Shown here in pieces: positions 37,752 through 59,385 of a stretch of DNA of 64,000 nucleotides. The notes beneath the pieces are model-generated. The model was not told where the DNA came from, did not search any database, and saw nothing but the letters and a program-made list of their open reading frames with translations. Within the stretch, counting starts at the first letter, position 1. Every line of letters begins with the position of its first letter. The position numbers and the translations under genes are program-made. Source of the DNA: Arenibacter sp. 6A1 (GTDB lineage Bacteria; Bacteroidota; Bacteroidia; Flavobacteriales; Flavobacteriaceae); NCBI RefSeq assembly GCF_012272855.1, contig NZ_JAAXCQ010000002.1, forward strand, positions 248,001-312,000, given 5' to 3'.

Positions 37752-37834
37752 TTTGGGCGTTCCCTCCTTCGTCGGGCGGGCCCTTGGCTATATCCCTTGC
37801 CATGCTGCGGGGATGCCGCCGCGGTCCCTAACGC
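37752..37834 (+). repeat. Dispersed repeat element, copy A
   Basis: 83 bp starting TTTGGGCGTTCCC and ending GGTCCCTAACGC. It is closely similar to copy D (59,303-59,385, reverse strand) and shares its ends with copies B and C. Just beyond it lies GTGAACAATAAACAA (37,843-37,857), also found after copy C. Open frames crossing it are not credible genes. Confidence 0.9.
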
Positions 37835-37978
37835 AGTATTCCGTGAACAATAAACAACTAGTAATGATTTCTTCATAGAGGACCAATGCGCCATTAGCCC
37901 GGTAATCCGGTTCCGGAAAAAACACTATCCCAAAAATTCCCCTATATACCGACCAACCCCCTTTTAAACGGCTATTTT

Positions 37979-38073
37979 GCGTTAAGGATTGCAGTGAAAA
38001 GCCCACAGTATTGCCCTAGCAATACGAGGACTTGCAGCGGAAAGCCTGACGGCCCTAGCCGGAACGCCCAAAT
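37979..38073 (-). repeat. Dispersed repeat element, copy B (inverted relative to A)
   Basis: 95 bp on the minus strand with the same ends (GGGCGTTCC at the right, CCTTAACGC at the left) and the internal GGCTTTCCGCTGCAAGTCC found in this element type. With copy A it forms an inverted pair whose AACGC ends face each other across 144 bp. Confidence 0.85.
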
Positions 38074-38258
38074 ACAATTCCTAGGGAAAGAATCCTCTCT
38101 TACTTAACCGCTTCTTGTATAAAAATGGGGCAATTAGCTTCGCAAACGCCTTATTTGTGGTACCTTGTCCACCCTAATCTTTTTTAGACCTTGGTTGATT
38201 TCCCAGAACACATTACCAAAAATGGCGGTTTATAAAGGAGTATTTTAAACTTTAAGCC

Positions 38259-39143
38259 ATGTTGCCCACAGAAACCCATAGCGTGCCCTTGCAAGAAAAA
38301 CCCATACGTTTACAGGACTATGGGGCAGGGATTTTCAGCAAGATCCCCACCAAATCGGCCTTAAAAAAGGCCCTAAAAAAAGAACTGATATCCGTGGATG
38401 GGAAAATTGCGACCACTGCAACTTATTTATACGGCCATGAGGTCATCATCTTTAGGGAACCTCCCAGCATCGCCCCTAAAAAATCCCTGATTTTCCCCTT
38501 AGAAGTAGTGTACCAGGACGATTATTTGGCCGTGATTTATAAACCAGCGGGTATTTTAACCAGTGGAAATAAATTTATTACCGTGGCCAATGCCTTGGCG
38601 CAAAACCTACACAGCAGCACCCAAGAAGATAAGATTTCGCCCCGACCGGCACATCGATTAGATTACCCTACCACAGGGCTTTTACTTATAGGAAAAACGA
38701 ACGCCGCCCTTACCGCCCTGCATAAACTATTTGAACACAAAACCATTGCCAAAACTTATTTTGCGGTAGCTATTGGCGCCATGCCGGCCCAGGGAACTAT
38801 AAATAGCCCTGTAGACGATAAAATGGCGATCTCTGCTTATGAAGTCCTAAAAACAGTGCCTTCGGAAAGGTTTCAGTGGTTGAATTTGGTAAGATTATCG
38901 CCAAAAACAGGAAGAAGACACCAATTAAGGAAACATTTGGCCTCCCTGAACAACCCTATTTTGGGAGATAAGGAATATGGCACAAAACCTTTGATACTTC
39001 ACGGAAAAGGCCTGTACCTGCATGCGTATTCCTTAACTTTTACACATCCGTTTACCCAAGAAAAAATGACCTTTACCAAAACACTTCCCGAAAAATTCAC
39101 CAAGTTGTTTCCAGATTTCCAAGACTTTTCCGGTCGTAGTTAA
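38259..39143 (+). CDS. RluA-family pseudouridine synthase
   Basis: 294 aa, cytosolic. An S4-like N-terminal part (ALKKALKKELISVDGKIATT) is followed by the PseudoU_synth_2 domain: VVYQDDYLAVIYKPAG, the catalytic HRLDYPTTG with Asp135, KTYFAVAIG and GRRHQLRKHLA. It modifies uridine in rRNA or tRNA; the exact site cannot be told. It is unrelated to the PUL and begins the non-PUL segment after repeat copies A and B. Confidence 0.93.
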   Translation: MLPTETHSVPLQEKPIRLQDYGAGIFSKIPTKSALKKALKKELISVDGKIATTATYLYGHEVIIFREPPSIAPKKSLIFPLEVVYQDDYLAVIYKPAGILTSGNKFITVANALAQNLHSSTQEDKISPRPAHRLDYPTTGLLLIGKTNAALTALHKLFEHKTIAKTYFAVAIGAMPAQGTINSPVDDKMAISAYEVLKTVPSERFQWLNLVRLSPKTGRRHQLRKHLASLNNPILGDKEYGTKPLILHGKGLYLHAYSLTFTHPFTQEKMTFTKTLPEKFTKLFPDFQDFSGRS

Positions 39144-39147
39144 TCTT

Positions 39148-40125
39148 TTATTCTTGGGAAATATGAAAAATGGCATCGCCCTGATTAACGATGGGAGATT
39201 GATTTATACATATAATATGACCGTCGTGTACTGCTTTTATACTGCGCTCAAAGTTGCCAAAAGGGTCGGACACACTCCCTAAAAGATCGCCTTTTTTTAC
39301 CTCACTTCCCAAGGCAATATAGGGGTGGAACATGCCAGAATATTTTGCCCTTACCCATTGTGACTTGTTAATGGTCACCGGGTTTTTTGCCTTTGCCTCC
39401 ATTTGGCCAAGCTCCTGGGCAAAATCTCGCATCCCCAAATGGTCCATTACCCTAAGGGCCCCTGCGATTCCGCTTTGTGTAACTCCATTATTAATATCCA
39501 AAGATTTCCCGCCTTCAAAAAGCAGCACTTTTTTCCCCATTTTGGCCAGGGCTTCCCGAAACGACTTTTCTCTAGTATTTGCCAGCATTACAAAAGGCGA
39601 TCCAAATACCTTTGCCAGTTCCATACTCTCTGCATCGTCCTTATTTATCCTAGTCTGGGGGGCATTAAAACGGCTTTCCGCTCCCGTATGGTAATCGATA
39701 CAGTAATCGACCACAGGAGCAATTTCTTTCATGATATGATAGGCAAACCTACTGGCCAAAGAACCACGGGCACTCCCGGGAAATACCCTATTGAGGTCTC
39801 GTCCATCGGGGAACTGCCTAGTTTGGTTTAGGAAACCGAAAATATTGACCACTGGCATACAAATGACCGTTCCGCATTGCGGCCGGTTGTATTTCTTGGA
39901 AATCAATTGGCGCACAATCTCTACCCCGTTCACTTCATTCCCATGAATACCGCCCGTTAGCAATAGAACGGGTCCCGGTTTTTTTCCGCGTTGTACGATA
40001 ATGGGAACTTCAATTTTGGTTCCTGTATGCAATTTGGCAATATCCAAATTCAGCAATATACCTTTCCCGGGCAACACGGTTTGCCCCAACAATTCAAATT
40101 TATTATTCGGCATGTCTTTCCACAT
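39148..40125 (-). CDS. Succinylglutamate desuccinylase/aspartoacylase (AstE/AspA) family protein
   Basis: 325 aa; start at 40,125 or at an ATG four codons on (40,113), both overlapping the end of rimK. Zinc-binding motifs GGIHGNEVNG and IDYHTGAE are intact, with the arginine region QFPDGRDLNRVFPG. The C-terminal 90 residues are a lipoyl/barrel-sandwich-like domain (SGMFHPYIALGSEVKKGDLL, VHDGHII). Proteins of this type are often encoded beside RimK and may trim or deacylate the products of RimK-type ligation; the substrate is not known. The overlap with rimK indicates an operon. Confidence 0.9.
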   Translation of the reverse strand: MWKDMPNNKFELLGQTVLPGKGILLNLDIAKLHTGTKIEVPIIVQRGKKPGPVLLLTGGIHGNEVNGVEIVRQLISKKYNRPQCGTVICMPVVNIFGFLNQTRQFPDGRDLNRVFPGSARGSLASRFAYHIMKEIAPVVDYCIDYHTGAESRFNAPQTRINKDDAESMELAKVFGSPFVMLANTREKSFREALAKMGKKVLLFEGGKSLDINNGVTQSGIAGALRVMDHLGMRDFAQELGQMEAKAKNPVTINKSQWVRAKYSGMFHPYIALGSEVKKGDLLGSVSDPFGNFERSIKAVHDGHIICINQSPIVNQGDAIFHISQE

Positions 40126-57949: not shown

Positions 57950-57953
57950 GTCC

Positions 57954-58868
57954 TTAAATAATTTCTAAAAAATGCTGTAGCGCCATGCTCTGTTGCTGCT
58001 TCTTCCAGGCAGCAAAAAGCTCCGTCTTATGCGGTTCCTTATCTAATTCTATAAACTTAATCCGGTAATTTTTATCGTCTTTTAAGGAATTGGGCACTAA
58101 GGCTATGCCCATGCCGTTTTCTACCAACTTAAAAATGGTAGGGCCATGAATAGACTTGTGGGCAATGCGTGGACTAAACCCGTAATCGGCACACAAATTC
58201 TGAATCTGCTGATAGTACATTGGACTATTTTCATTGGGGAAGAGAATAAAAGAAGCTTCCGAAAACTGTCCCATATTCTTAAAATTATCGGCAGTAACGG
58301 GATGCTCCAATGGTAAAACCAAAGAAAAATTTTCCCGGTAAACAGATTTTATCGCAATGTCCGAGGACACTTTATTAGAACGCATAAAGCCAATATCTAT
58401 TTGGTCCTGCTCTAAGGCCTTCAGCTGTTCGGCATTGGTAAGCTGTTCTAAATGAAACCTGATCTTGGGGTAGGCGGTACTAAATTCCTTGATGATGGGA
58501 GGCAGGTATTCTTGCATGGCCGAGCCAACGAACCCAATCCGCAATTGCCCTACGATACCGTCTAGGGACAATTGCCACCGCTCCATGGAACTATCCACCT
58601 GTTTCAATATCAAACGTGCCTCTTGTTGCAATAGCTCCCCGGCCGTGCTCAGAGCAACCTTTCTGTTGGTCCTAATAAATAAGGGCGTTCCCAACACATA
58701 CTCTAGCTGTTTTATTTGTTGGCTCAAGGCAGATTGGGAGATGAACAATATCTCTGCCGCTTGGGTATAGTGCAAGGTTTCTGCCAATACCAAAAAATAT
58801 CGCAGTGGCCGTAATTCTAATTGATTAATATTTCTTATCATTTTACGTAAAATAAGAACTTTTACCAA
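57954..58868 (-). CDS. LysR-family transcriptional regulator
   Basis: 304 aa from ATG at 58,868, or 295 from ATG at 58,841, which begins nearer the family consensus (LELRPLRYFLVLAETLHYTQ). The winged helix-turn-helix has AAEILFISQSALSQQIKQLE and LGTPLFIRTNRKVALSTAG. A coiled linker and a LysR substrate-binding domain (QLRIGFVGSAMQEYLPPIIK) follow. The inducer-binding half resembles regulators of aromatic and small-acid metabolism, but no target can be named. No divergent partner gene is adjacent; the next upstream sequence holds repeat copies C and D. Confidence 0.92.
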   Translation of the reverse strand: MVKVLILRKMIRNINQLELRPLRYFLVLAETLHYTQAAEILFISQSALSQQIKQLEYVLGTPLFIRTNRKVALSTAGELLQQEARLILKQVDSSMERWQLSLDGIVGQLRIGFVGSAMQEYLPPIIKEFSTAYPKIRFHLEQLTNAEQLKALEQDQIDIGFMRSNKVSSDIAIKSVYRENFSLVLPLEHPVTADNFKNMGQFSEASFILFPNENSPMYYQQIQNLCADYGFSPRIAHKSIHGPTIFKLVENGMGIALVPNSLKDDKNYRIKFIELDKEPHKTELFAAWKKQQQSMALQHFLEII

Positions 58869-58955
58869 TTAAAATTACAAAATAAATATAAAATAGTATG
58901 CCATAAGTTTCACAAGCAATGAGGATGGTAGCGACGTTCATCACTTGTTTTTTAT

Positions 58956-59048
58956 GTGGGGCGTTCCCCTACCGGGTCGCTCTTTCCGCTGTATCTTTTT
59001 TAAACGGCACAGCCGCTTAAAAAAGGATGCCGCTGCAATTGCTAACGC
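58956..59048 (+). repeat. Dispersed repeat element, copy C
   Basis: 93 bp from TGTGGGGCGTTCCCC to GCTAACGC. Inside is CTTTTTTAA-[CGGC-ACA-GCCG]-TTAAAAAAG, a near-perfect hairpin. It is followed by GTGAACAATAAGCAATAAAC (from about 59,056), as after copy A. Short open frames over it are artefacts. Confidence 0.85.
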
Positions 59049-59302
59049 GATTACAGTGAACAATAAGCAATAAACAATTATGTACGTCCCTGATGTAGGT
59101 TGACCATTTAGACAGTAATTATATTGCACTAACTAAAAACACGACTTCGCTGTCGCCCCTAGATGCCACCACAAGCTCCAAAATCCTGATTTCATTTTTT
59201 AGGACCACATAATAAGGTACTTCCCACTGATATGGGTTTATGTACCTATTTTTATTACCTCAATTGCTACATTGATTAATTAATACATTGTTACATTAAT
59301 TT

Positions 59303-59385
59303 GCGTTAGGGACCGCAGCGGCATCCCCGAAGTGGAACGAGGGATATAGCGGAGTGCCCGCCCGACGAAGGAGGGAACGCCCAAA
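59303..59385 (-). repeat. Dispersed repeat element, copy D (inverted relative to C)
   Basis: 83 bp on the minus strand, nearly the same as copy A apart from two short segments in the middle. The AACGC ends of C and D face each other across 254 bp, repeating the A/B arrangement. The 58,869-59,525 gap otherwise holds no gene that I can support. Confidence 0.9.

What the first reader, a model, noticed from the sequence alone, without database searches (positions are those of the whole stretch)
37752..59385. Dispersed 83-95 bp element in two inverted pairs that bracket a 21-kb segment
Copies A(+)/B(-) at 37.75-38.07 kb and C(+)/D(-) at 58.96-59.39 kb share the ends GGGCGTTCC and AACGC, variable middles and in C a hairpin. 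In both pairs the AACGC ends face inward, and A and C carry the same adjacent GTGAACAATAA. A and D are almost the same. I know similar GGGCGTT...AACGC sequences from other Flavobacteriia, where they are often misread as small ORFs, but no function that I am aware of. The pairs sit exactly at the borders between PUL, middle segment and right end, so they may be a REP/BIME-like non-autonomous mobile element and sites of recombination, including inversion of the enclosed block.
Basis: partly seen in the sequence, partly recalled or inferred. Interest (0 to 1): 0.7.

Follow-up and report, generated by a model that had tools for sequence, protein, structure and literature searches.

The report
Three-arm DNA fold multiplied across chromosome
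The four repeats are copies of one small three-armed DNA structure, filed until now as a flavobacterial RNA, that also sits beside the early-expression switches of conjugative plasmids such as F and in filamentous phages, and that this bacterial lineage has multiplied to about two hundred chromosomal copies.

Summary
C is Rfam Flavo-1, RF01705, filed as an sRNA; A, B and D are relatives of other subtypes.

Copy number: a pattern for the 3' half finds 228 places in this genome and 211 in its nearest relative, against 5-17 in 16 other species of the genus. Against that relative, 22 of 22 testable sites are occupied in both. Against a more distant species, 10 of 11 comparable copies are missing there. 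So there was an old burst, now stable; the 21-kb block is not inverted in the relative.

A RAYT link is unproven: 0 of 30 loci of one RAYT type carry the element, yet 4 of 5 Y1-transposase loci of this genome lie within 1 kb of a copy.

The new part: copies share a strongly covarying three-way junction. A model trained on Bacteroidota finds it in conjugative plasmids, including both Frpo-bearing blocks of F (E 4e-8 and 4e-5), and in an inovirus. Plasmid copies are co-oriented (7 of 7 plasmids). I infer a single-strand DNA signal of incoming replicons, copied onto chromosomes in REP-like fashion by an unproven enzyme.

The parts
37755..37834 (+). Copy A, subtype T2 (GGGCGTT end left, AACGC end right)
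   Evidence: model R1 57.7 bits
37979..38068 (-). Copy B, subtype T3, resembling the Bacteroides plasmid form (GCAAGTCCTCG arm)
   Evidence: model R1 74.6 bits
58959..59048 (+). Copy C, subtype T1 (T6..A6 arm with hypervariable palindromic tip); Rfam Flavo-1 reads the other strand
   Evidence: (RF01705, 49.7 bits)
59303..59382 (-). Copy D, subtype T2, 87% like A
37841..37870 (.). Short degenerate repeat on the AACGC side of A (GTGAACAATAAACAACTAG)
   Evidence: similar sequence beside many T1/T2 copies
59056..59082 (.). Short degenerate repeat on the AACGC side of C (GTGAACAATAAGCAATAAACAATTA)
   Evidence: length differs in the nearest relative
59258..59301 (.). Short degenerate repeat on the AACGC side of D (TTGCTACATTGATTAATTAATACATTGTTACATT)
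   Evidence: shorter in the nearest relative

Best explanation
A-D are copies of one structured DNA element. Shown: (1) Its copies share a three-way junction. P1 is GCGTT/AACGC, P2 is a CCC..GGG mini-hairpin, and P3 is GGG/CCC continued by a variable arm; covariation is strong. (2) The same element lies on conjugative and mobilizable plasmids of Bacteroides, Moraxella, Shewanella and Vibrio, at the upstream end of two duplicated blocks of plasmid F that fit the description of Frpo2 and Frpo1, and in two inovirus records. (3) On plasmids with two or more copies the copies share one orientation and mostly precede a co-directional gene. (4) In this bacterial lineage it reached about 210-230 chromosomal copies and has since kept its places. 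Inferred: on plasmids and phages it acts as a signal read on incoming single-stranded DNA, as part of the module that lets the recipient's machinery start RNA or complementary-strand synthesis. The chromosomal copies are descendants multiplied by an enzyme that acts on single-stranded DNA; Y1 transposases are candidates, unproven. They behave like REP elements: intergenic, both orientations, flanked by variable islands.
For: Structure: 97.0% of 664 cells paired against 85.2% shuffled, 11 pairs with double changes against 5.5, 67 such cells against 20, 0 of 500 shuffles as high on these measures; slid structures 28-59% (the fifth measure, further pair types, did not differ: 178 of 500). Free columns: 210 Watson-Crick, 0 G.T, 6 A.C, 6 other. 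T1 triples GCT/AGC, GGG/CCC, GCG/CGC match in 27 of 30 own copies against 14.7 by permutation. Family: the F copies score E 4e-8 and 4e-5 in 18 kb with filters off, 6e-7 and 6e-4 in 258 kb; Pf inovirus 2e-6, with P1 changed to GCGAT/ATCGC; M. catarrhalis 2e-15, V. parahaemolyticus 9e-11, Shewanella 8e-8. F copies are 470 and 471 nt before ssb and the gene at 64032, 5.4 kb apart, in a 548-bp block 90% alike, fitting Frpo2 and Frpo1 as described in passages of PMC9849209. Co-orientation: 7 of 7 plasmids, 17 copies. Amplification. Stability. Absence in G004.
Against: No experiment here shows folding or activity. I could not see whether the 82-nt F element lies inside the fragments tested as Frpo; the published promoter hairpin may lie downstream of it. 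Strand evidence conflicts: T1 arms give 8 G.T against 25 A.C on the GGGCGTT strand, favouring the Rfam strand, but the common C.A opposition of columns 24/61 (30 of 37) and the 6 free A.C cells are G.T on the other strand. In G009 only 6 of 11 T1 triples match. Chromosomal copies show no gene or strand orientation that such a signal would need (112/116; AACGC side faces 25 gene starts and 35 gene ends, GGGCGTT side 26 and 45). Copies A and D do not fold better than shuffles. No mobilising enzyme was shown. Rfam's own Flavo-1 model does not find the F or Shewanella copies. The Dulem inovirus copy scores only E 0.09 with R1, though it has both conserved ends. Neighbouring plasmid genes tend to run one way anyway, which weakens the gene-facing count.
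Confidence: 0.52

Rival explanations
1. REP/BIME-like parasites moved by a RAYT- or IS200-type Y1 transposase, with plasmid and phage copies being mere insertions into ssDNA targets.
For: High copy, mostly intergenic, hairpin-bearing, convergent pairs, absent at comparable sites in a sister species. In this genome 4 of 5 Y1 loci lie within 1 kb of a copy: C11 IS200-like 555 nt, C58 RAYT array 861 nt, a broken C58 RAYT 195 nt, and a C59 RAYT-like gene inside a T1/T2 island; C30 does not. About 10-15% each would be expected from the density.
Against: 0 of 30 loci of one RAYT type, nearly all in other genomes, carry the element (one query type, 1.5 kb flanks); 1 Y1-like ORF in 80 element loci. 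Ends are not GT[AG]G. The C58 array has its own hairpins. The islands collect several kinds of mobile genes, which may explain the nearness. Plasmid copies are co-oriented.
Confidence: 0.25
2. A structured RNA (trans-acting sRNA or untranslated-region element), as Rfam files it.
For: Rfam RF01705; some 5' transcripts of F. psychrophilum coincide with hits (passage of PMC9723704).
Against: That paper found hits in sense and antisense and many outside transcripts. No G.U on the Rfam strand among 222 free cells. No consistent gene orientation on the chromosome.
Confidence: 0.08
3. The chromosomal copies are host-functional sites (replication, repair or chromosome organisation) kept by selection.
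For: 22 of 22 testable sites kept over about 8% divergence, with complementary changes in the tip of C; one copy at own C59 127.9 kb has a counterpart in G004.
Against: Only 5-17 pattern hits in 16 sister species; both orientations without visible order.
Confidence: 0.1
4. attC-like sites that capture gene cassettes.
For: T1/T2 islands hold different cargo such as HigBA-like and YefM/YoeB-like genes; one island start is T2 in G000 and T1 in G009 with the same outer border.
Against: No tandem cassette array seen; AAC/GTT order opposite to attC as I recall it; no integrase search was made.
Confidence: 0.05

Closest known systems
Flavo-1 RNA motif, Rfam RF01705 (Weinberg et al. 2010, PMC2864571: one table passage seen)
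   Same: Sequence and fold; copy C is above its cut-off.
   Different: Filed as an sRNA of Bacteroidetes; here it looks like a DNA element, with subtypes Rfam misses, plasmid and phage members, and a burst to about 228 copies.
Frpo/ssi modules of plasmid F (Masai and Arai 1997 recalled, and cited in PMC9849209 and PMC11541004, of which I saw passages)
   Same: Two copies of the same three-way junction sit at the upstream end of two F blocks that fit Frpo2 and Frpo1; co-directional with leading genes.
   Different: I could not show that the junction is part of the tested promoter; the chromosomal copies lack promoter-like orientation.
REP/REPIN elements with RAYTs (Quentin et al. 2018, PMC6006769, passages seen)
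   Same: Dispersed intergenic hairpin repeats in inverted pairs; subclass 2.6 RAYTs of Bacteroidetes have 'atypical' structures.
   Different: Three-way junction of roughly 77-170 nt, ends not GT[AG]G, no demonstrated RAYT, found on plasmids and filamentous phages.
phiX174 and G4 F-G intergenic origins
   Same: Single-strand initiation in ssDNA replicons.
   Different: No match by R1 to the two short stretches searched.

Membership tests
Rfam Flavo-1 (RF01705) | Covariance-model score above the gathering cut-off | tested here: met
   C 49.7 against 42 bits; B 29.4, below; A and D not reported (A; D)
Rfam Flavo-1 (RF01705) | Is a small RNA gene | not testable with these tools
   no transcript data; indirect evidence against
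REP/RAYT (REPtron) | Dispersed high-copy intergenic hairpins | tested here: met
   228 pattern hits, control 0; 71 of 80 copies of G000 and G009 outside ORFs of at least 80 aa
REP/RAYT (REPtron) | A RAYT gene flanked by the same element | tested here: inconclusive
   0 of 30 loci of one RAYT type; but 4 of 5 Y1 loci of this genome within 1 kb of a copy, one inside a T1/T2 island
REP/RAYT (REPtron) | GT[AG]G foot of canonical REPs | tested here: not met
   shared ends are GGGCGTT and AACGC; subclass 2.6 REPs also lack the foot
F-type Frpo/ssi module | Lies in the leading region upstream of leading genes, co-directional | tested here: met
   F 2 of 2, and Shewanella 3 of 3 next to leading-type genes by my reading; not so for the chromosomal copies
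F-type Frpo/ssi module | Single-strand promoter activity with -35/-10 in the folded strand | not testable with these tools
   no assay; no such boxes claimed here
Three-way-junction family described here | Model trained on Bacteroidota recognises members in other phyla | tested here: met
   (Moraxella, Shewanella, Vibrio, F, Pf inovirus); Dulem inovirus E 0.09, phiX174 and G4 stretches none
attC / integron | Cassette array with integrase | not tested
   no integrase search done

The most novel reading that the evidence does not exclude
The Flavo-1 fold is one ancient single-strand DNA entry signal shared by conjugative plasmids and filamentous phages from Bacteroidota to Gammaproteobacteria, including the Frpo blocks of plasmid F; chromosomes of Bacteroidota have been colonised by it, in this lineage massively.
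Probability: 0.45. Interest if true: 0.87.

Novelty: new variant of a known kind. Interest (0 to 1): 0.74.

Why it matters
It turns an unexplained Rfam 'sRNA' into a testable single-strand DNA element, ties it to the early-expression modules of conjugative plasmids (where anti-defence genes sit), supplies a searchable profile that reaches plasmids of Vibrio, Shewanella, Moraxella and Bacteroides as well as F, and gives a lineage in which such an element became a REP-like repeat of about 200 copies.

Tried and rejected
RAYT link: searched the genome with PF01797 and 120 genomes with one RAYT protein (28 of 120 had a match, 30 loci kept); none of those 30 loci held the element by HMM or descriptor. 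This does not settle it: on re-reading, Y1 loci of this genome lie near copies more often than expected. The C58 RAYT array has its own GCTAGCG hairpins in 147-bp repeats. The IS200-like gene of C11, 555 nt from a T1 copy, has other flanking repeats (by eye).

Promoter reading for chromosomal copies: gene orientation was not consistent. Insertion boundaries at base level: G004 is too distant (about 75%) to fix them. phiX174 and G4 stretches: no likeness. A literature search by motif letters gave only noise; 'Flavo-1' gave two papers; searches for a link of these plasmid, phage and Flavo-1 features found none. So 'not in print' rests in an open-access library only, of which I read passages of six papers.

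Rows dropped: in the co-orientation count, the descriptor hit L318 22014 (a CTT triple, among tra genes) and the R1 hit L315 32138 (16.0 bits, E 0.12); R1 fragments of longer copies in L313 and L318 were counted once with their copy. One of the two M. catarrhalis copies is shortened. The descriptor count (68 of 80 loci) includes chance hits; with a GGG triple starting at the pattern it is 66 of 80, several of the rest being cut by a contig or stretch end. One search found 99 stretches, 80 were listed and read. The 5' half and P2 loop of those 80 were fixed by my search pattern and are not evidence. The G009 comparison left out 3 of 25 own copies and 3 G009 copies for lack of the opposite stretch. 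The wobble count assumes ungapped stems.
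Full report
WHAT IS THERE. The four copies exist as described. A (37755-37834 +) and D (59303-59382 -) are one subtype, here T2. C (58959-59048 +) is T1, with a T6/A6 arm and a palindromic tip. B (37979-38068 -) is T3. Rfam identifies C as Flavo-1, RF01705, on the opposite strand at 49.7 bits (cut-off 42), and B weakly (29.4 bits). My model R1 finds exactly these four in 64 kb at E <= 5 (all four were among its 37 training rows).

COPY NUMBER. Rfam's model finds 68 places in the genome at E <= 0.01 (only 150 of 1,099 candidates were scored). 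A 24-letter pattern of the 3' half with up to 3 mismatches finds 228 (112/116 by strand; control 0) in G000. Of the 196 genomes of that Flavobacteriales sample 49 have a match, and the largest other count is 23. In the genus, G009 has 211 and the 16 other species 5-17 (controls 0-1). So the expansion belongs to the G000/G009 branch. On contig C59 (261 kb) there are 19 T1/T2 copies. Of 80 copies in the held stretches of G000 and G009, 71 lie outside ORFs of at least 80 aa. The GGGCGTT side is nearer to a gene (median 131 nt) than the AACGC side (348 nt); it faces 45 gene ends and 26 gene starts, the AACGC side 35 and 25.

PAIRS. In the stretches held, 12 of 13 neighbours closer than 2.5 kb are convergent with AACGC inward, and all 12 are one T1 plus one T2; 9 of these are independent loci. 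The window's A/B pair is T2 plus T3, also convergent. Some stretches were fetched because hits lay close together, so the number of pairs is biased, but orientation and type are not. On unselected contigs close pairs are about as common as expected from density. The DNA between partners differs from locus to locus: HigB/HigA-like genes, a RAYT-like gene, a secreted protein, or nothing recognisable (names by my reading; the RAYT-like frame is checked).

AGE AND STABILITY. Against G009 (92% identical over the C/D region), all 22 testable own T1/T2 copies (19 on C59, 3 on C23) have a counterpart at the matching place; 3 further C23 copies could not be tested. B too has its counterpart in G009. 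Copy C and its G009 counterpart differ chiefly in the tip, where changes on the two arms are complementary. At one site (own C59 220727) G000 has T2 and G009 has T1 with the same outer border and different island content. Differences between the genomes gather on the AACGC side (by reading). Against the complete genome G004, eleven own C59 copies (nine places) have both flanks placed: one (127907) is matched there, ten are not, and the scan found only that one element in 360 kb of G004 at E <= 0.01. At the T1-RAYT-T2 island (own C59 179545-180773) G004 has 68 bp between the aligned flanks where own has about 1.4 kb. At 23262/24320 G004 has other DNA between the flanks. I read this as insertion on the G000/G009 branch followed by stability. 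Deletion in G004 is not excluded site by site, but the genus-wide counts speak against it. A/B and C/D themselves could not be compared, because gene order on one side differs. The 21-kb block has the same order and orientation in G009.

RAYT LINK UNPROVEN. Pfam PF01797 finds four Y1 genes in the genome. The C58 pair has its own hairpins, GCTAGCGCGAGCG, in 147-bp repeats. A search of 120 family genomes with the C30 RAYT gave 30 held loci; none carries the element within 1.5 kb. In 80 element-bearing loci from named genomes there is one Y1-like ORF. Against this, in G000 itself four of five Y1 loci lie within 1 kb of a copy: C11 (555 nt), the C58 array (861 nt), a broken C58 RAYT (195 nt) and the C59 gene inside a T1/T2 island; C30 does not. 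At one copy per 20 kb I would expect about 10-15% each. Shared residence in long variable islands may explain it; so may a real link. Other enzymes were not sought.

A WIDER FAMILY. BLAST with a T1 copy found 32-33-nt matches on plasmids of Phocaeicola, Bacteroides and Moraxella. The four I read on have the full architecture, ending ATCCCTAACGC or ATCCCTAACGT, with a different arm. A 38-nt query found 126 plasmid records at E <= 10 (many weak) and 14 phage records (mostly weak). Of the phage hits read, two inovirus records have both conserved ends, and the Pf phage changes P1 to GCGAT/ATCGC; an unclassified phage contig and one virus contig have it too. A Shewanella plasmid copy used as query matched 56 plasmid records at E <= 0.01: Vibrio 27, Shewanella 14, Photobacterium 10, Bacteroides 3, Aliivibrio 1, Moraxella 1. 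An exact 31-letter 5' pattern over one genome per species gave 99 stretches; of the 80 listed, all but one (an Endomicrobium MAG, cut at a contig end) are titled as Bacteroidota taxa, and 66 of 80 have a complete element with a GGG/CCC triple at the pattern.

STRUCTURE. On 37 aligned copies (4 window, 28 contigs, 5 Bacteroidales plasmid copies) an 18-pair three-way junction is 97.0% paired, with 11 pairs changed on both sides; no shuffle of 500 reached this, and slid versions fall to 28-59%. The arm appears in several sequence versions with the same pairing columns. In six pairs free of my search pattern there are 210 Watson-Crick, 0 G.T, 6 A.C and 6 other cells. The absence of G.T on the Rfam strand is unusual for an RNA, as far as I know. 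A G.A opposition (columns 13/73, 37 of 37; column 73 is fixed by my pattern in the contig rows) and a C.A opposition (24/61, 30 of 37) are kept. The P2 loop is often GNA on the Rfam strand, a loop I recall as very stable in DNA, but my pattern fixed it in most rows. Among T1 copies the P3 triple matches in 27 of 30 in G000 (permutation mean 14.7) but only 6 of 11 in G009. As DNA, B and C fold better than shuffles (z -2.4 to -2.9) and A and D do not.

PLASMID F. The 18 kb of F between 50 and 68 kb hold two copies with P1 GCGTC/GACGC, at 58091-58172 and 63479-63560. R1, trained without them, finds them at E 4e-8 and 3.9e-5 with filters off, with the next best at 0.32; in the 258-kb search they have 5.7e-7 and 5.7e-4. 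They lie 470 nt before ssb and 471 nt before the gene at 64032, in a 548-bp block 90% alike. The passages I saw of PMC9849209 place Frpo2 upstream of ssb and Frpo1 upstream of ygeA/ygeB, 92% alike and about 5 kb apart, and report that both are needed for early expression of downstream genes from the incoming single strand. I identify the blocks by this description; I saw no coordinates. Whether the junction is inside the tested promoter fragments is unknown to me. Rfam's Flavo-1 does not find these copies.

ORIENTATION. On seven plasmids with two or more copies (F 2, M. bovoculi 4, M. ovis 2, M. catarrhalis 2, Shewanella pS18501 3 in the 50 kb read, V. parahaemolyticus pVPM09045 2, p5482 2) all copies point the same way. 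By my reading of the gene tables, 15 of 17 face a co-directional gene on the AACGC side, two of them past an annotated ORF that overlaps the element; the exceptions are one M. ovis and one M. bovoculi copy. Copies within one plasmid may be duplicates of each other, and genes there tend to run one way, so these counts are not independent trials. In the three Shewanella copies the next gene starts 253-277 nt away; one is ParB-like and one a zincin-like metallopeptidase protein. In the two inovirus records the strand that codes for the annotated genes seen carries the GCGTTAGGG (or GCGATAGGG) fold. On F, if leading genes are transcribed from the transferred strand as the papers state, that strand carries the same fold. 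This is inference.

READING. The element works like a signal of incoming single-stranded replicons and is, by model score, one family with the junction in F's Frpo-bearing blocks. That it is itself an ssDNA promoter or priming site is inferred. On the chromosome it behaves like a REP: many copies, both strands, no gene logic, a burst followed by stasis. The enzyme that multiplied it and any chromosomal function remain open. In F. psychrophilum a transcriptome study had already noted that Flavo-1 hits lie in sense and antisense and often outside transcripts (passage of PMC9723704), which fits a DNA element.

Noticed in passing
L048 6354-9360 (G000 C58): Two near-identical RAYT genes among eleven related 58-bp units, most of them 147 bp apart, that carry the gene's own 3' end and a GCTAGCG/CGAGCG hairpin: an unusual expansion of a RAYT tail plus REP.
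   Followed up: partly
G000 C59 179635-180695; G009 C36 124003-124323: A RAYT-like gene inside a T1/T2 island in G000; in G009 the island is short and keeps only a GGTACCG repeat like the one within the gene.
   Followed up: partly
G000 C59 23354-24319; G009 C36 about 79.2-80.8 kb: HigB/HigA-like and YefM/YoeB-like gene pairs lie in the islands next to the elements (names by reading the translation by eye).
   Followed up: no
L125-L139 (sister species): In several sister species the tip of the T1-like arm holds a second hairpin, CCTGCAAGGTTT..AAACCTTGCAGG, nested inside the first.
   Followed up: no
L077 1635-2702 (G007): A tandem duplication of about 634 bp, each unit ending in the 3' half of the element, with a run of N inside.
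   Followed up: no
G000 C59 127907; L140 5352; L142 5795: A divergent copy at apparently the same place in G000, G009, G004 and G012, shortly before what looks like a gene start: perhaps a copy kept for a function.
   Followed up: partly
Many loci, e.g. L046 19300-19580: Degenerate arrays of about 7-8 bp (AACAATTAGCAATAA; ATTGTTACATT), often on the AACGC side of the elements; at C/D their length differs between genomes.
   Followed up: no
L046 18640-19240 (G000 C11): An IS200-like gene with the Y...Q..HH motif of subclass 1.2, flanked on both sides by ATTAATATGTCGCCCCGCTGGGGC repeats that could be its REP.
   Followed up: no
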